From Paraconexibacter algicola (GTDB taxonomy: Bacteria > Actinomycetota > Thermoleophilia > Solirubrobacterales > Solirubrobacteraceae): DNA of 64,000 nucleotides. Positions 22,757 to 29,611 of this stretch are shown here, one piece after another. The stretch lies in NCBI RefSeq assembly GCF_003044185.1, contig NZ_PYYB01000004.1, forward strand, positions 62,001 to 126,000, written 5' to 3'. Each line of letters opens with the position of its first letter. The first letter of the stretch is position 1. The translations under genes and the position numbers were made by a program. The notes beneath the pieces are model-generated. The model made no database searches. It was not told where the DNA came from and saw only the letters and a list, made by a program, of their open reading frames with translations.

Positions 22757-24184
22757 TCAGGGCGCGGGCGTCGGCGTGGCGGCGGGCTCGAAGCCCGGGG
22801 CGCCGCCGTCGCCGCTGCCCGAGCTCGAGTCCTGCGGCTCGGTGAGCGCCTCGTCCTGCTGGCCGCTGTCGCTCTGCGGGCGTGCGCTGCTGCCGCTGTC
22901 GCCCTGCCCGCGGGTGCTGCCGGACGACGGGGACTCGTCGGCGGGAGCCGCGGGAGCGGCGGTCGTCGGCGTCGCCGCGCCGTCCTGCTCGTCCTCGGCC
23001 TCCTCCTGCGCCTTCTCACGGCGCTCGGCGGCCCGCTGCGCCGCGGCCTCGCGCGTCGTGCGGCGGTCGGACGCCTCGATCCGCGCGAGGGCCGCGCGCG
23101 CGGCCTCGGCGGCGCGGCGCTGGATCGCCTCGTCGGCCGGTGGGCGGCGGGCGGGCGGGGCCGGGTTCGGCGGCCCGGGGACGCCGCCGGGCGGCTCGGG
23201 CGCGGTGCCGCCGAAGACGCCGGCGATCGCGGAGGCCGTGACGACCGCGGCGGTGACGATGACGGCCGGGACCACGACGCGCGGCACGAGCGAACCGGAG
23301 CGCGCAGACCCCTGGGTGGGCGCGGGCCTGTCGGCGGCCCGCTCGCCGTCCGCGTCGTGCGGCGGCAGGACGGTGAGCACCGCGGTCTCGTCCTCGGGCG
23401 CGAACGGGTCGTCCTGCGGCTCCTCGGCGTCGCGGTGCAGGTCGATGACCACGACCTCCGCCGCCTCGGGCTCCTCGAACGCGGCCGGGTCGTCCTCGAA
23501 CGGCTCGGGCTCGGGCTCGGGCGCCGCCTCCGGGACGACCGGGGCGGGCGCGACCGGAGCGTCGGCGACGGTCTCGACCGCGGCCACGGCCTCCGGGGCG
23601 GGCGGCGCGGGGGCCTCGTCGACGACCGGCTCGGGCGCCACGGGGACCGGCTCGTCGATCGCGGGACGGTGCAGGACCGGGGCGGCGGACGTCAGCGCGG
23701 CCACGACGCGCGCGACGACGACCGCGTCGGCGGCTTCCGTCTGCGGCCGGCGGAACGCCGCCTCCGCAGCGTCGATGGACTCGGCGAGCTCCGCGCAGAC
23801 CGCGCAGGTGACGAGGTGCTTCGTCAGCCGCGCCTCCTCGGAGACCGCGTTCATCCCCTCCAGCCGCGACACCGCCAGGAACGGGGTGGCCGGGCACTCG
23901 GGCCGCGTGCCGCGCACCGGGCAGAGCGCCGCGACCGAGTGCCGCGTGCAGGACAGCAGCAGCGCGTCGGGCGCGAGGTCCGCCGGGTCGTCCGCCGCCG
24001 CGACCGCGCCGCGGAACCGCGCGAACGCCTCCGCGGTCGCGTCGAGCGCCGCCGCCTCGTCGCAGACGAGCCGCGCGTACGCGTAGACGGCGCCGCTGCG
24101 GCGCTCGGCCAGGCCGACGAGCGCCTCGGGGTCGCCGTCCCGCACCCCCTGCGGTGTCACGCGGGATGTCGAGGACGTCGTCAC
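22757..24184 (-). CDS. membrane protein with sigma-region-2-like and zinc-anti-sigma-like cytoplasmic domains
   Basis: 475 residues from GTG 24184; GTG 24190 is also in frame but sits only 3 bases from the -10. Residues ~18-65 (LVGLAERRSGAVYAYARLVCDEAAALDATAEAFARFRGA) read like region 2 of an ECF sigma factor. Residues ~120-135 contain H123-x3-C127-x2-C130, the ZAS zinc motif of anti-sigma factors, preceded by four more Cys/His. An acidic Pro-rich linker (170-270), one transmembrane helix (about 302-324), a charged coiled coil (350-400) and a low-complexity tail follow. A membrane-bound self-contained sigma/anti-sigma fusion or a decoy regulator is possible. No region 4 is visible, so it is unlikely to be an active sigma factor. 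Confidence 0.62.
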   Translation of the reverse strand: MTTSSTSRVTPQGVRDGDPEALVGLAERRSGAVYAYARLVCDEAAALDATAEAFARFRGAVAAADDPADLAPDALLLSCTRHSVAALCPVRGTRPECPATPFLAVSRLEGMNAVSEEARLTKHLVTCAVCAELAESIDAAEAAFRRPQTEAADAVVVARVVAALTSAAPVLHRPAIDEPVPVAPEPVVDEAPAPPAPEAVAAVETVADAPVAPAPVVPEAAPEPEPEPFEDDPAAFEEPEAAEVVVIDLHRDAEEPQDDPFAPEDETAVLTVLPPHDADGERAADRPAPTQGSARSGSLVPRVVVPAVIVTAAVVTASAIAGVFGGTAPEPPGGVPGPPNPAPPARRPPADEAIQRRAAEAARAALARIEASDRRTTREAAAQRAAERREKAQEEAEDEQDGAATPTTAAPAAPADESPSSGSTRGQGDSGSSARPQSDSGQQDEALTEPQDSSSGSGDGGAPGFEPAATPTPAP

Positions 24185-24254: not shown

Positions 24255-26171
24255 TCAGGGCAGGATCGTGATCTTCGAGGACACGCGACTGACGTTCCCG
24301 GAGCCGTCCACGGCCCGGGCGGCGACGAGCAGCAACGCCGGCGGGAGCCGCGGCCCGATCTTGAACCGCCACGACCGCTTGCCGACCGCGACGTTGCGGA
24401 ACGCGCGCAGCTGGCAGTTGAACGTCGGGCGGAAGCGGTCGCCGTCGAGGAAGAAGCAGCGACCGACGCTGTTGACGTACGTCACGGCGATCTCGACCTT
24501 GAGGATCCCGGAGCCGCCGCGGTCGGTCGTGACGCCGCGGATCGTGCGGCGCGTCCGCGAGGTCGAGACGCTCGTGATCCGCGCGCGGGGCCGGATCCGG
24601 TCGAGCGTGAGACGGAAGGTGCGACCGATCGGATCGGGGAGGATGCCCGGCCCGGTGGCCCGGATCGTGATCGAGCGGCCGGGCCGGCGCAGCGACACGG
24701 TCGGCCCGCACGTGAACGGCACCCCGAGGTCGACGCGGCACAGGTACCGCGTCGCGCCGGGGTCGTCCGCGCCGACCGTCACGGAGCGGGACGTGCGGTC
24801 GACGCTCGAGGTGCGCGCGGGGACGAGTCGGCGGACGAACACGTCCGCCAGCGCGTCCGGGACCCCCGGGACGAGGTTCGTGGCGGTGCTGACGAAGCCG
24901 ACGGTCTCCCCGTCGTTGGTGATCGTCGGGCGCTGCAGCAGCTGACCGGTCAGCTCGGGCTGGCGGCGGCCGCCGTCGTTGGCGACCGAGGCGATCGTCG
25001 TGGTGAAGGTGCGCAGGTCGCGCACGAAGATGTCGGCGCCCACGCCGTCGCCGTCCCGCGCGAGGTTCGTGGCGAACGACTGGAACGCGACATGCCGCCC
25101 GGACGGCGTGATCACGGGGGAGACCGAGTCGTTGTTCCCCTGGACGCTCGAGCTGCTCGAGCTGACCAGCCGGGTCGTCTCCTCGCGGCGGTCGCGGACG
25201 AAGACGTCCGAGCGGCGGTTGATGTCGTTGGGGACGAGGTTCGACGCCTCGGAGTCGAACACGACGAGCCGACCGGTCGCGTCGAGGTCGCTGACCATGC
25301 GGAACGGCGCGGTCACCGCCCGGTTCTGCTGGCGGCCGTTGGTGCTGACGCTCACGCGCGAGGTCTCGCGGCGGACGAGGTCGCGCACGAACACGTCGGC
25401 TTGGCGGTTGGTGTCCTCGTCGACGAGCGTGTTCGCGGCCGACTCGAACGACACCACGCGGCCGTTGGCGCTGATCGCGGGCGTCGAGGACCGGAACCGG
25501 GCCTGCTCGCCGTCGGTGCTGACGCTGACCCGCTCGGTCTGCCCGGTGAGGAGGTCACGGACGAACACGTCGGTCTGGCCGTTGGAGTCGCCGTTGACGA
25601 GGTCCGAGGCGTCGGACTCGAACACGACGTAGCGGCCGTCGGCGGAGATGTCCGCGTTGCGCGACGCGCGGTTGCCGAGCGTGCCCGACGGCGTGACGCT
25701 GACCGGGAGGACCCGGCCGATCCCGTCGCGGACGAACACGTCGGAGGCGCCGTTGCCGTCCCCGGGGACGAGGTTCGTCGCGTCGGAGGTGAACACGACG
25801 CGCTGTCCGTCACGGGACATCGCCGGGTCGGTCGAGGCCCCGTCGGCGCCCGTGCCGTCCGGGGTGGCGGAGACGAGGCGCCGCTCACCGGAGACGCCGT
25901 CGAGGACGACGACGTCCGCGATCGGGCCGTTGAGCTCGTCGCCCGGGACGATCCCGGTGGAGGTCGTCGTGAACGCGATGACCCGCCCCGTGGTGCTGAG
26001 GAACGGCTCGGCGCTCGACCCGTTGGCCGGCACGCCGCCGGACTGGGTCGAGATCTGCAGCGTCCGCGGCTGCACGACCGCGCCGTGGGCGACGCCGACC
26101 AGCGGGACCCCGAGGGCGACGGTGACGGTGAGGAGGGTGCGGCGCGGATGCCGGCGCAGGACAGCGATCAC
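24255..26171 (-). CDS. secreted 7-bladed TolB/PD40-like beta-propeller with calcium-type loops
   Basis: 638 residues, GTG start overlapping the previous stop. It has a signal peptide (RRTLLTVTVALGVPLVGVAHG). Seven repeats each end in D-V/I-F/V-V-R/L-D/R (for example DVFVRDLLTG, DVFVRDLVRR, DIFVRDLRTF). Each carries an Asp/Asn-rich turn of the type GDSNGQTD, GDGNGASD, EDTNRQAD, NDINRRSD. Blades also share S-x-D-G-R-x-V-x-F, the PD40/TolB signature. These turns resemble calcium-binding D-x-N/D-x-D/G loops. The C-terminal ~200 residues are two Ig-like beta domains (CRVDLGVPFTC... and RARITSVSTSRTRRTIRG). It is a probable envelope scaffold or adhesion protein; no enzymatic motif seen. Confidence 0.78.
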   Translation of the reverse strand: MIAVLRRHPRRTLLTVTVALGVPLVGVAHGAVVQPRTLQISTQSGGVPANGSSAEPFLSTTGRVIAFTTTSTGIVPGDELNGPIADVVVLDGVSGERRLVSATPDGTGADGASTDPAMSRDGQRVVFTSDATNLVPGDGNGASDVFVRDGIGRVLPVSVTPSGTLGNRASRNADISADGRYVVFESDASDLVNGDSNGQTDVFVRDLLTGQTERVSVSTDGEQARFRSSTPAISANGRVVSFESAANTLVDEDTNRQADVFVRDLVRRETSRVSVSTNGRQQNRAVTAPFRMVSDLDATGRLVVFDSEASNLVPNDINRRSDVFVRDRREETTRLVSSSSSSVQGNNDSVSPVITPSGRHVAFQSFATNLARDGDGVGADIFVRDLRTFTTTIASVANDGGRRQPELTGQLLQRPTITNDGETVGFVSTATNLVPGVPDALADVFVRRLVPARTSSVDRTSRSVTVGADDPGATRYLCRVDLGVPFTCGPTVSLRRPGRSITIRATGPGILPDPIGRTFRLTLDRIRPRARITSVSTSRTRRTIRGVTTDRGGSGILKVEIAVTYVNSVGRCFFLDGDRFRPTFNCQLRAFRNVAVGKRSWRFKIGPRLPPALLLVAARAVDGSGNVSRVSSKITILP

Positions 26172-27136
26172 GAGCCCGGCGCCTCACGTCCGGGCTGGGC
26201 CGACGGCTCGGCGCCCTGCGGGACGTCCGGCGAGGCGGGCGCCTCGGCGACCGGGGTCGACGGTGCGGCGGGGGCCGACGGCGCGGGCCGCGACGGGCGC
26301 GACGGCTGCTGCGGGGTCCGGACAGGCTGCCGCACCGGGGCGCTCGGCGCGGCGGCCGCGGGCGCGGACACGACCGGGGCGGCGGCGACGGCGGCCCCGC
26401 CGCCCCCGGTGGCCGGGGCGGCGGCCGCGGCGGCGCGACGCGCCGCGCGGCGCGAGCGGCTGACGGCCCGGGCGGCGCTGCGGCGGGCCGCGCGGTTCTC
26501 GGCGGCGGCGCCGCGCTCCTGCTGGCTGATCGTCTGCTCGGTGAACCCGGTCGTGCCCGCGACGTCCGCGGGGGCGGCGACGGTGACGGCCGGCTCGTCG
26601 GAGGAGAACGTCCCGGCCGCGGCGGCAACGCCCAGTGCGGCGACCGCGACCACGGCCACGCCGCCCGCGTAGAGGGTCGAGCGGTTGCGGGTCGCGCGGA
26701 TCGGGGCGAATCGCGGGACGGTCGACGCAGGGACGACGGCGACCGGTGCGCCCTCGGCAGGTGCCCACGCGTCGGATGCGTCGGCCGCGGCGACGGAAGC
26801 GGGAGCCGCGGTCGCCCACGGGTTCGCGGACGTGGCGGGAGCGGCCGCGGCGGCGACCGCCCACGGGTTCCCGGACCGGGCGGGCTCGCCACCGTCGGCC
26901 GCGACGGCGGGGGCCGGGGCGTCGACGGCCGCGGCCGGCACCGCGTCGGCGACGACCCAGCTGCTGGCGTCGTGCGCGGACGCCGGCCGCGCCGCGTCGG
27001 CGGGCAGCCACGGGGTCGACGTGGCCTGCGGGCCGGAGGGCGTCGCGGCCGCAGCCGTCGCCGTCGCCCCGTCCGGCTCGTCGGCGCGCGGGACCCAGGG
27101 GGACGCCGCGCGCGGAGTGTGCTCTGCCCCGCTCAT
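26168..27136 (-). CDS. single-pass Ala/Pro-rich membrane protein with repeated Trp motifs
   Basis: 322 residues. The ATG at 27136 is chosen because the longer start adds an unrelated Arg-rich leader. The cytoplasmic part (1-150) is disordered, Ala/Pro-rich, and carries six spaced Trp motifs: SPWVPR, TPWLPAD, SSWVVAD, NPWAVAA, NPWATAA, DAWAPAE. One transmembrane helix (about 155-176) is followed by an Arg-rich helix (RAARRSAARAVSRSRRAARR) and a long Pro/Ser/Ala tail outside. It overlaps the propeller gene by GTGA, so the two are co-made. The layout matches the protein at 22757. The Trp motifs may be docking sites for a cytoplasmic partner. Confidence 0.65.
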   Translation of the reverse strand: MSGAEHTPRAASPWVPRADEPDGATATAAAATPSGPQATSTPWLPADAARPASAHDASSWVVADAVPAAAVDAPAPAVAADGGEPARSGNPWAVAAAAAPATSANPWATAAPASVAAADASDAWAPAEGAPVAVVPASTVPRFAPIRATRNRSTLYAGGVAVVAVAALGVAAAAGTFSSDEPAVTVAAPADVAGTTGFTEQTISQQERGAAAENRAARRSAARAVSRSRRAARRAAAAAAPATGGGGAAVAAAPVVSAPAAAAPSAPVRQPVRTPQQPSRPSRPAPSAPAAPSTPVAEAPASPDVPQGAEPSAQPGREAPGS

Positions 27137-27188: not shown

Positions 27189-28658
27189 TCAGTCGCGGCG
27201 CAGATACCCGCGCGCCTCGCGGACGAGGTCGCGTTCCAGCGCGACCGTGGCGACCGCGGTGGCCGCGACGAAGGTCGCGAGCTCGGCGATCGTCACCAGA
27301 CCCCGCGCGGAGGCCCCGTCCAGCAGCCGCAGCCCGAGGGTGACGGCCGTCGCGACGAGGGCCGGGGCGAACGCGCGGACGCAGTGCGCCAGGGTCCGGA
27401 ACGCCGGGAAGATGCGCCGTAGGAACCAGAACCGGGCGAGCACGACGACCACGGTCTGCACGAGAAATCCCACGGCGAGCCCCTCGAGTCCCTCGAGCAG
27501 GATCAGCGGGAGCGTCACGACGAGGAACGCGACGAGCGTCAGCCCGGCCGCGACGGCCATCGGCCGCGTGTCGTCCCGGGCCCGCAGGATGCTGTCCCAG
27601 TTGAACCCCAGGTGGTTGACCGCGGCGGCGACCCCGAACGCCTCGAGGACCGGGATCGCGTCGCCCCAGCGGTCCTGGCCGAGCACGAAGTGCACGAGGT
27701 CCCCGGCGAACACCGCGAGCCCGAGCCCGAACGGCGCCGCCCACAGCAGCGCGATGCGGTTCGCCTTGGTGAACACCTCCTGCAGCACCTCGGTCCGGTC
27801 GGCGACCGCGCAGATCGCCGGGTAGAGGGTGCCGGAGACGATCTGGTCGACGCGGTCGGCGAACTGCGAGATCGAGGCCGCGAGCGTCACGACGCCGGCC
27901 GCGGCGATCCCGAGGTGCGCGGTCGTCGCGGTGATCGTCCCCTGCGCGATGACGATCGCGCTGCCGGACGCGAGCAGCAGCGGGATCGAGAACGACGCGT
28001 AGCTGCGCAGCGTCCCGCGGTCGTAGCGCAGGCGCAGCGGGTACGGGCACGAGCGGACGCTCACGATCGCCGACGCCCACCCGCCCGCCACGACGGCGAG
28101 CACGAGCGCCCAGTAGCCGGCCCCGGCGATCGCCAGCGCGATCGCCACGACGAACGAGACGAGCGGGTCGACCGCCTGCAGCAGCCGCTGCTTGAGGAAC
28201 TCCAGCCGCCGGTAGTAGATCCACAGCGGCGCCTGCAGCACCAGCGCGGGCATCACGCAGAGCAGCACGTAGCCGGGCAGCACGATCTCCGACGGGGCGA
28301 ACGTGACCGCGATCACCGGGATCGCGCCGGCGAGCACGAGCGTGAACAGGGCCGTGAACGCGAGCTCAAGCGTGAACGCCTTCTGGAAGGCGAGCTGCTG
28401 GTCGGGGTCGTCCTGCTGGATGTACTTGTCGCCGATCCCGACCTGCTTGAGCCACAGCAGCGTGCCGAGCGAGATGATCAGGACACCCCAGATCCCGTAG
28501 TCGTCGGGCTCCAGGAAGCGGGCGAGGATGACGCCGCGCAGCAGGCCCAGCGCGGCGAGCGCGACGAGGAAGACGCTGTTGACGAGCGTGCCGCGTGCCG
28601 CGACGACCCGCAGGCTGCGGCCGCGCAGGTCGAAGCGCTGGGAGCCGGGGCTGCTCAC
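27189..28658 (-). CDS. Wzx-type polysaccharide flippase, copy 2
   Basis: 489 residues from a GTG preceded by GGAGGG, a good SD; it overlaps the upstream GT2 stop. Its N-terminus has LVNSVFLVALAALGLLRGVILARFLEPDDYGIWGV, the classic flippase helix 1 with R-F-L-x-P-x-D-Y-G. It has about 12-14 helices and YYRRLEFLKQRLLQAVDP in a cytoplasmic loop. The RDDTRPMAVAAGLT loop is also typical of the Wzx/PST group. It is expected to export undecaprenyl-linked repeat units made by its neighbours. Confidence 0.9.
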   Translation of the reverse strand: MSSPGSQRFDLRGRSLRVVAARGTLVNSVFLVALAALGLLRGVILARFLEPDDYGIWGVLIISLGTLLWLKQVGIGDKYIQQDDPDQQLAFQKAFTLELAFTALFTLVLAGAIPVIAVTFAPSEIVLPGYVLLCVMPALVLQAPLWIYYRRLEFLKQRLLQAVDPLVSFVVAIALAIAGAGYWALVLAVVAGGWASAIVSVRSCPYPLRLRYDRGTLRSYASFSIPLLLASGSAIVIAQGTITATTAHLGIAAAGVVTLAASISQFADRVDQIVSGTLYPAICAVADRTEVLQEVFTKANRIALLWAAPFGLGLAVFAGDLVHFVLGQDRWGDAIPVLEAFGVAAAVNHLGFNWDSILRARDDTRPMAVAAGLTLVAFLVVTLPLILLEGLEGLAVGFLVQTVVVVLARFWFLRRIFPAFRTLAHCVRAFAPALVATAVTLGLRLLDGASARGLVTIAELATFVAATAVATVALERDLVREARGYLRRD

Positions 28659-29611
28659 GAGCCCTCCCGACGGGCCGCGAGACGGGCGGCCAGGAGCGCG
28701 TGGGCGCGGTCGCGCCGCCAGCCGTACCCGGCCGGGGCCAGGCGCGCCGCGACGGTGAGCGCGGCGGACCGCACGCCGCCCGCGCCGACCGCCAGCGCCC
28801 ACCACGCGGCGGTGCGCGCCGGCCCGAGACGGCGGCGCGACCAGGCGTGCGCCGCGCGCTGGCTGCGCTGCAGACGCCCGGCGCCCCACGCCTGCGTGGT
28901 CGACGCGGCGACGTGGTGCTCGACCACCGCGTCGGGCACGTAGCGGGTCGGGGCCCCGGCCCGGGCGGCGCGCCAGCAGAGGTCGAGGTCCTCCGCGTAC
29001 ATCCACATCGACGGGTCGAAGCCGCCCAGCCGCTCCCACAGCGCGCGCGGCAGCAGCAGGAACGCGCCGTGCGCCCAGTCGACGGTGCGCCCCGCGCCCG
29101 GATCCCAGGCGCCCTCCAATGCGAGCCGCCGCGCCTCGCCCGGAAGGACCCGCGCGAGGCCGAGGTCGACCGCCGCGACCTGCCGCAGCGACGGGAACGG
29201 GTGCACGCTGTGCTGGATCCCGCCGCCCGGGGTGCGCAGGCATGGCGCGAGCACCGCGTCCCCGTGCCGGGCGGCCGCGGCCAGCAACGCGTCGAGCGCG
29301 CCCGGGGTCACCGCGGTGTCCGCGTTCGCGACGGCCACGTACGGCGTCCGGGCCCCGGCCAGCGCGACGTTCGCGGCCGTGCCGAACCCGGGGTTGTCGG
29401 GTCGCTCCACGAGCGCCGCCCACGGATGGGCGTCGCGCACCAGGGCGGGGGAGCCGTCACCCGAGCCGTTGTCCACGACGACGACCGCGGCGCGCCCCGC
29501 GACGTGCTCGGGCTCGAGCGCGCGCAGGCACGCGTCGAGGAGGTCCCGCGTGTTCCACGAGACGACGGCGACGGTCACGGCGGGTGCGGCGTGCGCGGAC
29601 AACGGGCCCAT
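28655..29611 (-). CDS. glycosyltransferase family 2 (WbbL-like rhamnosyltransferase type)
   Basis: 318 residues from ATG 29611. ATG 29635 is also in frame but sits on the divergent promoter. Motifs are VTVAVVSWNTRDLLDACL, VVVVDNGSGDGS, the DxD-equivalent VANADTAVTP, FLLLPRALWERLGGFD and the catalytic-base segment MYAEDLDLCWRA. This profile is that of dTDP-rhamnosyltransferases such as WbbL, although the donor cannot be proved from sequence. The C-terminal ~60 residues are basic with a possible amphipathic helix. It is the first gene of a two-gene operon with the flippase. Confidence 0.88.
   Translation of the reverse strand: MGPLSAHAAPAVTVAVVSWNTRDLLDACLRALEPEHVAGRAAVVVVDNGSGDGSPALVRDAHPWAALVERPDNPGFGTAANVALAGARTPYVAVANADTAVTPGALDALLAAAARHGDAVLAPCLRTPGGGIQHSVHPFPSLRQVAAVDLGLARVLPGEARRLALEGAWDPGAGRTVDWAHGAFLLLPRALWERLGGFDPSMWMYAEDLDLCWRAARAGAPTRYVPDAVVEHHVAASTTQAWGAGRLQRSQRAAHAWSRRRLGPARTAAWWALAVGAGGVRSAALTVAARLAPAGYGWRRDRAHALLAARLAARREGS

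What the first reader, a model, noticed from the sequence alone, without database searches (positions are those of the whole stretch)
22757..24184. One membrane protein with a sigma-region-2-like domain and a zinc anti-sigma motif
Seen: a helical segment resembling ECF sigma region 2, then H-x3-C-x2-C, an acidic linker, one transmembrane helix, a coiled coil and a low-complexity tail. No region 4 is present. Known: ECF sigma factors and ZAS anti-sigma factors are normally two adjacent proteins. Inference: this is a fused regulator, a decoy that binds core RNA polymerase, or a former pair that has become an envelope sensor. Four further Cys/His residues sit between the two parts.
Basis: partly seen in the sequence, partly recalled or inferred. 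Interest (0 to 1): 0.68.

Follow-up and report, generated by a model that had tools for sequence, protein, structure and literature searches.

The report
Sigma-factor relic wired into envelope protein
This soil-actinobacterial membrane protein carries, inside the cell, one half of a gene-switching sigma factor joined to the zinc domain that normally restrains sigma factors; the part needed to find genes is gone and the rest is kept under selection, which suggests that a transcription switch was rebuilt into a cell-envelope signalling or anchoring module.

Summary
ORF 22757-24184 (-) encodes a sigma-2 fold (residues 9-90), joined by a short linker to a zinc anti-sigma domain (ZAS, 91-167; C97-x25-H123-x3-C127-x2-C130), then an acidic Pro-rich linker, one TM helix and a charged/low-complexity outer tail. 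Sigma-4 and the sigma-2/4 linker are absent. AlphaFold2 gives pLDDT 91.7; the eight best VIA-align matches are sigma factors, and Foldseek's best match is the ZAS of RsiW. Full-length copies occur in 29 genomes of one order (Solirubrobacterales), none found outside it. ECF signature residues for -10 recognition and probably core binding are lost (Trp 0/26 against 19/22 ECFs; Asn 0/26 against 19/22; Gln 0/26 against 16/22), yet the domain is under purifying selection (omega mostly 0.15-0.31). Its ZAS is closest to that of a complete ECF-ZAS fusion in the same genome, so sigma-4 was probably lost from an already fused protein. In two genomes the module is joined through the TM helix to a sortase plus peptidoglycan-binding domain, in two others to LytR_C; most copies lie beside glycosyltransferase or flippase genes. 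Best reading: a pseudo-sigma/anti-sigma cytoplasmic head of envelope proteins. Fusion itself is known (ECF48/52/53); sigma-4 loss and the sortase/LytR_C forms appear new.

The parts
22757..24184 (-). whole ORF, 475 aa (start GTG 24184; GTG 24190 also possible)
   Evidence: homologues begin 4-10 residues before the conserved VTPxGVRDGDP
23915..24160 (-). sigma region 2-like domain, residues 9-90, lacking the ECF -10 and core-binding signature residues
   Evidence: HMM 22.2 bits E 1.9e-6 against controls; hhalign P 7e-7; AF2 and VIA-align; residue counts
23684..23914 (-). zinc anti-sigma (ZAS, zf-HC2) domain, residues 91-167, joined to sigma-2 by a short linker without sigma-4
   Evidence: RsiW is Foldseek rank 1 and the best natural PDB sequence match to the profile; zf-HC2 in homologues
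23795..23896 (-). zinc ligands C97, H123, C127, C130; all four present in 22 of 26 homologues, C/H/H/C in one, lost in three
23279..23683 (-). acidic, Pro-rich cytoplasmic linker, residues 168-302
   Evidence: composition
23210..23278 (-). single TM helix, residues 303-325, ending in AGVFG(G), a motif common among homologues
   Evidence: hydropathy maximum 2.34; homologue sequences
22757..23209 (-). outer tail: charged helical stretch, then Ser/Pro/Thr-rich low complexity
   Evidence: sequence; no Pfam family
24255..26171 (-). upstream gene on the same strand, PD40 (TolB-like) beta-propeller; also next to the module gene in G014 and G021
   Evidence: Pfam; clustering
26168..27136 (-). second TM protein with basic tail; the protein in the same position in G014 (L081:9334-11136) still has a ZAS domain
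   Evidence: no Pfam hit
27189..29578 (-). polysaccharide flippase and GT2 glycosyltransferase at the head of the same-strand run
   Evidence: Pfam

Best explanation
The gene encodes a pseudo-sigma/anti-sigma module: the cytoplasmic head of a single-pass envelope protein. SHOWN by computation: a sigma-2 fold fused to a ZAS domain, no linker or sigma-4, ECF promoter- and core-contact signature residues lost, fold kept under purifying selection, ZAS nearest to that of a fused ECF-ZAS protein, related modules joined through the TM helix to sortase/peptidoglycan-binding or LytR_C domains. INFERRED: (1) an already fused, membrane-bound ECF-ZAS protein lost its sigma-2/4 linker and sigma-4; (2) the retained sigma-2 packs in cis on the sigma-2-binding face of its own ZAS, as a built-in ligand and not as a promoter reader; (3) the head, with zinc mainly structural, binds a cytoplasmic partner or reports the state of the envelope and so positions or gates the envelope function on the other side of the membrane, here in a polysaccharide-assembly locus.
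For: Fold; the sortase-fused homologue also models as sigma-2, its 16 best VIA-align matches all sigma factors. Loss of function as a sigma: Trp at the pocket position 0/26 against 19/22 own-genome ECFs; Asn 0/26 against 19/22; Gln 0/26 against 16/22; Asp of 2.2 5/26 against 20/22; sigma-L Trp68 stacks on the -11 base (PMC6372665; that the two Trp correspond rests on position after loop L3). Selection: omega of sigma-2 0.15-0.31 in ten of eleven pairs, 0.42 in one, against 0.52-0.97 for linker, TM and tail in ten pairs. Origin: ZAS profile 33.7 and 28.9 bits to the ECF-ZAS fusions L018 and L037, at most 19.3 to the other ORFs compared; in full fusions the zinc Cys lies 79-96 aa after sigma-2, here about 9. 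Envelope link: Sortase 2.8e-24 with PG_binding_1, LytR_C 2.1e-14; glycosyltransferase or flippase genes within 6 kb in 19 of 27 loci. A cytoplasmic N-terminal extension is needed for sortase E1 function in Streptomyces (PMC5148588).
Against: No experiment and no coordinates were available, so cis packing of sigma-2 on ZAS was not measured; it is suggested only by pTM 0.85. The sigma-2 half does not favour the L018/L037 group over other ECFs. In the window's own lineage the outer tail has no recognisable domain, so the sortase and LytR_C fusions (four incomplete genomes of another family of the order) may not reflect the function here. Conserved neighbourhood can be inherited without functional meaning; pdxT (17 of 27) is the commonest single neighbour.
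Confidence: 0.5

Rival explanations
1. A trans-acting anti-sigma factor: the internal pseudo-sigma-2 fills one face of the ZAS, and the free helix-1 face captures the sigma-4 of another ECF in the cell until a signal or proteolysis of the TM protein releases it.
For: ZAS fold and zinc ligands kept in 22/26; class I anti-sigma domains bind sigma-4 with helix 1 and sigma-2 with helix 4 (PMC7406223); the genome has about 40 sigma-2 proteins; membrane ZAS proteins are normally anti-sigma factors.
Against: No sigma-4 match in the window and no ECF among the conserved neighbours; three homologues lost zinc ligands; it does not explain why sigma-2 is kept in cis in nearly every lineage.
Confidence: 0.22
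2. A sigma mimic or decoy: after proteolytic release the sigma-2-like domain competes for another anti-sigma domain (as PhyR competes for NepR) or for core RNA polymerase.
For: A conserved sigma fold with degenerate DNA and core contacts is the hallmark of PhyR's sigma-like domain (PMC8103513); PhyR appears weakly among the structure matches.
Against: Its own ZAS is attached and would be the nearest competitor; no receiver domain; the usual core-contact residues are lost, which argues against a polymerase decoy; no separate anti-sigma partner identified in the neighbourhood.
Confidence: 0.13
3. Half of a split sigma factor: this protein supplies region 2 and another protein supplies region 4, as RsoA and SigO do in Bacillus subtilis.
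For: Region 2 alone can serve in SigO-RsoA (PMC8103513); the sigma-2 domain is under strong selection.
Against: The -10-pocket Trp, the Asn and much of the basic end of region 2.4 are missing from the family; no sigma-4 match in the window; the ZAS is fused in cis.
Confidence: 0.06
4. A decaying relic of a fused ECF-ZAS protein without function.
For: Signature residues and zinc ligands are being lost in places; the second membrane protein of the cluster has lost a recognisable sigma-2 in G014 and has no recognisable ZAS in the window.
Against: Purifying selection on sigma-2 and ZAS in all pairs tested; conservation across 29 genomes; fusion to different envelope domains.
Confidence: 0.04

Closest known systems
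Fused ECF-ZAS membrane sigma factors, groups ECF48, ECF52 (SCO4117) and ECF53
   Same: One chain with ECF region 2, a ZAS-like zinc finger, TM helix and long outer region, in Actinobacteria (PMC8999054)
   Different: Those keep sigma-4 and are regarded as real sigma factors; here linker and sigma-4 are absent and promoter contacts are lost
Own-genome ECF-ZAS fusion L037 (G000:C3:144048-144731) and L018 of the same order
   Same: Closest ZAS of all compared (28.9 and 33.7 bits); TM and low-complexity tail
   Different: Complete sigma-2 plus sigma-4 (L018: Sigma70_r2 7e-15, Sigma70_r4_2 8e-16)
Class I anti-sigma factors such as RsiW, ChrR and RskA
   Same: ZAS/ASD fold; HxxxCxxC motif and TM helix in many
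   Different: No sigma-2 domain in cis, and normally a cognate ECF encoded next door
RsoA of the SigO-RsoA pair
   Same: Sigma region 2 without region 4 in one protein
   Different: RsoA works with SigO and has no ZAS or TM (the latter from general knowledge); here signature residues are lost and no partner is nearby
PhyR sigma-like domain
   Same: Sigma fold with degenerate core and promoter surfaces, kept for protein-protein binding
   Different: PhyR has sigma-2 and sigma-4-like parts plus a receiver domain, is soluble, and acts on NepR
Class E sortases (SrtE1)
   Same: Homologues in G227/G228 carry an outer sortase domain behind the module; class E sortases have a functionally needed cytoplasmic extension (PMC5148588)
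   Different: The cytoplasmic extension of SrtE1 is not described as sigma-2/ZAS; the window protein has no sortase

Membership tests
ECF sigma factor | sigma region 2 fold | tested here: met
   HMM, hhalign, AF2 and VIA-align
ECF sigma factor | ECF signature residues for -10 recognition and (by assignment from region 2.2) core binding: pocket Trp, Asn, 2.2 Asp and Gln | tested here: not met
   0/26, 0/26, 5/26 and 0/26 in the family against 19, 19, 20 and 16 of 22 ECFs; the window protein itself keeps the 2.2 Asp (D48)
ECF sigma factor | sigma region 4 and the sigma-2/4 linker | tested here: not met
   no Pfam hit in the protein, no PF08281 match in the window; about 9 aa between sigma-2 and the zinc Cys
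Zinc anti-sigma (ZAS, class I ASD) protein | C-xn-H-x3-C-x2-C zinc motif | tested here: met
   C97, H123, C127, C130; zf-HC2 above cut-off in homologues, not in the window protein itself
Zinc anti-sigma (ZAS, class I ASD) protein | anti-sigma domain fold | tested here: met
   Foldseek rank 1 is RsiW, prob 0.94 but E 1.4; four helices within 97-167
Zinc anti-sigma (ZAS, class I ASD) protein | cognate ECF encoded in the neighbourhood | tested here: not met
   no sigma-4 match in the window; no ECF among shared neighbours
Zinc anti-sigma (ZAS, class I ASD) protein | binds and inhibits a sigma factor | not testable with these tools
   needs binding and transcription assays
Fused ECF-ZAS sigma factors (ECF48/52/53 type) | complete ECF followed by ZAS and TM | tested here: not met
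   ZAS and TM present, ECF incomplete
SigO-RsoA two-subunit sigma | partner gene with sigma-4 next to it | tested here: not met
   distant orphan sigma-4 partners not tested
PhyR-type sigma mimic | receiver domain plus sigma-2/sigma-4-like domain | tested here: not met
   no Pfam receiver or PhyR match in the protein

The most novel reading that the evidence does not exclude
A sigma-2/anti-sigma pair has been turned into a transcription-independent cytoplasmic regulatory module of cell-envelope proteins, including sortases: a locked pseudo-sigma head that links the inside of the cell to wall anchoring and glycopolymer assembly outside it.
Probability: 0.35. Interest if true: 0.82.

Novelty: new variant of a known kind. 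Interest (0 to 1): 0.62.

Why it matters
Complete ECF-ZAS fusions are known, and their activation is thought to be proteolytic. A conserved descendant without sigma-4, with lost promoter contacts but selected fold, would show how transcription-factor parts become envelope signalling or anchoring modules, much as PhyR became a sigma mimic. It also gives a concrete, testable candidate for how the cytoplasm could control class E sortases and polysaccharide assembly in a little-studied soil lineage, and it warns against annotating such proteins simply as sigma or anti-sigma factors. One carrier, Paraconexibacter antarcticus 02-257, is a named strain with a complete genome.

Tried and rejected
Pfam and NCBIfam scans of the window protein alone found nothing useful; homologue profiles were needed. 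A pattern scan of genome contigs with the single protein found no relative; with the consensus-like subset A4 it did. A first hit to L018 aligned the family with the later part of that protein; separate domain profiles resolved it. I tested whether the sigma-2 half also points to the L037/L018 group: it does not discriminate (16.5 and 12.3 bits against up to 26 for other ECFs), and part of the comparison set had been chosen by the family profile, so it cannot rank groups. A promoter or RNA signal was not pursued. PRODH/P5CDH genes beside about a third of the loci were judged neighbours only. The idea that the extra Cys and His form a second metal site was rejected: C79 and C88 are not conserved. 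Foldseek E-values are all above 1 for this helical model, so VIA-align ranking and sequence statistics carry the fold claim.

Full report
WHAT IS THERE. The minus-strand ORF 22757-24184 encodes 475 residues. The window has 75.6% G+C; relatives with names are Conexibacter, Paraconexibacter antarcticus and other Solirubrobacteraceae/Solirubrobacterales. Alone, the protein hits no Pfam model even at E 10, but it has homologues: 17 of 61 relatives, and 70 of 146 genomes of the bacterial family match the profile at E 1e-3, though most weak matches cover only one half. Alignments of 15 and then 26 homologues (A1, A2) show two conserved domains: VTPxGVRDGDPxAL...RRGxAVLAYC...AEAFARFR...LDPExLLLxATRHAAA, then C...P.LLAARA..xL...D..RL.RHL..C..CRA....AE.AY.

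REGION 2. An HMM of 22 ECF sigma-2 domains from the same genome scores the window protein 22.2 bits (E 1.9e-6, about 330 sequences searched); 12 of 15 homologues score above every shuffled or reversed control (best control 6.6), in the same register. hhalign between the two profiles is collinear over 80 columns with P = 7.2e-7. The A1 profile also picks M. tuberculosis SigC sigma-2 from the PDB, weakly (E 0.21), and RsiW (E 0.015). AlphaFold2 gives eight helices, pLDDT 91.7, pTM 0.85. VIA-align's first eight matches are all sigma factors or built on them (CnrH Z 7.7, rmsd 2.0, 82 residues; region 2 of E. coli sigma-E Z 7.7; SigW 7.3; R. sphaeroides SigE 6.5; sigma-32 5.1; one, 9a50_A, is a modelled entry whose title does not say which chain it is), then unrelated chains from Z 4.3. 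Z below 8 for a helical model would be weak alone; the agreement of related entries with the sequence statistics is what counts.

ZAS. Foldseek's first match is RsiW (prob 0.94, 26% identity, E 1.4). zf-HC2 reaches its cut-off in L003, L008, L012 and L019 and in L147, L148 and L103. Ligands C97, H123, C127 and C130 are complete in 22 of 26, C/H/H/C in one, and lost in three; zinc-free class I anti-sigma domains are known (PMC7406223).

NO REGION 4. No PF08281 match falls in the window, out of 95 in the genome at E 0.1. In the genome's complete ECF-ZAS fusions the zinc Cys follows the end of sigma-2 by 79-96 residues; here by about 9. Nine such fusions were found by inspection and pattern in the loci read (L031, L032, L034, L037, L038, L040, L046, L130, L132). 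So ECF-ZAS fusion is routine in this genome, and loss of sigma-4 is the unusual step. The family ZAS profile scores 33.7 and 28.9 bits on the fusions L018 and L037, at most 19.3 on all other ORFs compared, which points to that group as source or sister of the ZAS half. The sigma-2 half does not discriminate.

NOT A SIGMA FACTOR, BUT SELECTED. In a joint alignment the Trp after loop L3 (19 of 22 ECFs) is absent from all 26 family members; the Asn of the ARN motif (19/22) is absent; the region-2.2 Gln (16/22) is Ala or Gly in all; the 2.2 Asp (20/22) is kept in five, including the window protein. In the sigma-L complex Trp68 stacks on the -11 base and the sigma-2/4 linker enters the active-centre cleft (PMC6372665). 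That the Trp column equals Trp68, and that the Asp and Gln contact core polymerase, is my assignment from position and general knowledge. Nei-Gojobori dN/dS for eleven pairs is 0.15-0.31 for sigma-2 in ten pairs (0.42 in one), 0.10-0.54 for ZAS, and 0.52-0.97 for linker, TM and tail in ten pairs; the eleventh has too few sites for that part. The domain is maintained for something other than reading promoters.

ENVELOPE CONNECTION. Full-length modules occur in 25 genomes of the window's family and four of a second family of the order; none of 396 genomes drawn from the phylum, or of 299 and 399 drawn from the class, added a full-length copy outside the order. In G227 and G228 the module continues through a TM helix into a sortase domain (2.8e-24, 3.6e-21) and PG_binding_1; in G229 and G230 into LytR_C (8.1e-11, 2.1e-14). 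The sortase-fused head also models as sigma-2 (pLDDT about 86-95 over most of the core; its 16 best VIA-align matches are sigma factors, best Z 8.7). Directly upstream of the G228 gene lies a 96-aa protein ending LASTG, hydrophobic stretch, RRR (L148:1974-2264), which looks like a class E sorting signal (LAXTG; PMC5148588). The cytoplasmic extension of Streptomyces SrtE1 is needed for its function (same paper). LytR_C domains accompany glycopolymer ligases in Streptomyces, function unknown (PMC11481543). In the window the gene ends a same-strand run: GT2, flippase, a second TM protein, a TolB-like propeller, then this gene. Among 27 loci, GT or flippase genes lie within 6 kb in 19, pdxT in 17, the PD40 propeller in 3 (several contigs are short, so these are lower bounds).

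MECHANISM. The most economical reading is a former membrane-bound ECF-ZAS protein that lost linker and sigma-4 and became a locked pseudo-sigma/anti-sigma head serving envelope proteins. Which partner it binds, whether signal flows inward or outward, and whether sigma-2 really sits on its own ZAS are inferences. A trans-acting anti-sigma role through the free sigma-4-binding face is the strongest rival.

NOVELTY. I found no paper describing a sigma-2/ZAS protein without sigma-4, or such a head on a sortase, in eight searches of the open-access library; subscription papers were not searchable, so novelty is provisional. ECF-ZAS fusion as such is known (ECF48, ECF52, ECF53; PMC8999054).

Noticed in passing
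L147:6640-8559 and L148:2302-4215 (G227, G228): Sigma-2/ZAS head fused through a TM helix to a sortase and a peptidoglycan-binding domain; next to one of them a small LASTG protein (L148:1974-2264) that may be its substrate.
   Followed up: partly
L145:7898-9310 and L146:1641-3140 (G229, G230): The same head fused to an outer LytR_C domain.
   Followed up: partly
L101:3719-5182 and L103:1-1202 (G103, G102): Two copies of the sigma-2/ZAS module in tandem in one ORF, without sigma-4.
   Followed up: partly
window 26168-27136 and L081:9334-11136 (G014): Neighbouring TM protein: the G014 counterpart begins with a ZAS domain, the window copy has no recognisable ZAS, suggesting stepwise domain loss in the same cluster.
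   Followed up: partly
window 23207-23230 and homologues: The TM helix ends in a conserved AGVFGG-like motif whose role is unknown.
   Followed up: no
L152:1435-3237 (G526): ECF-ZAS protein whose C-terminal region carries an NPCBM carbohydrate-binding domain, another envelope-facing fusion; its sigma-4 scores below the Pfam cut-off.
   Followed up: no
G007 = Paraconexibacter antarcticus NZ_CP098502.1 (L011); also L009, L013: Homologues that lost most or all zinc ligands yet keep the ZAS helices (G006/G007 pair omega 0.16), so zinc is dispensable in some lineages.
   Followed up: partly
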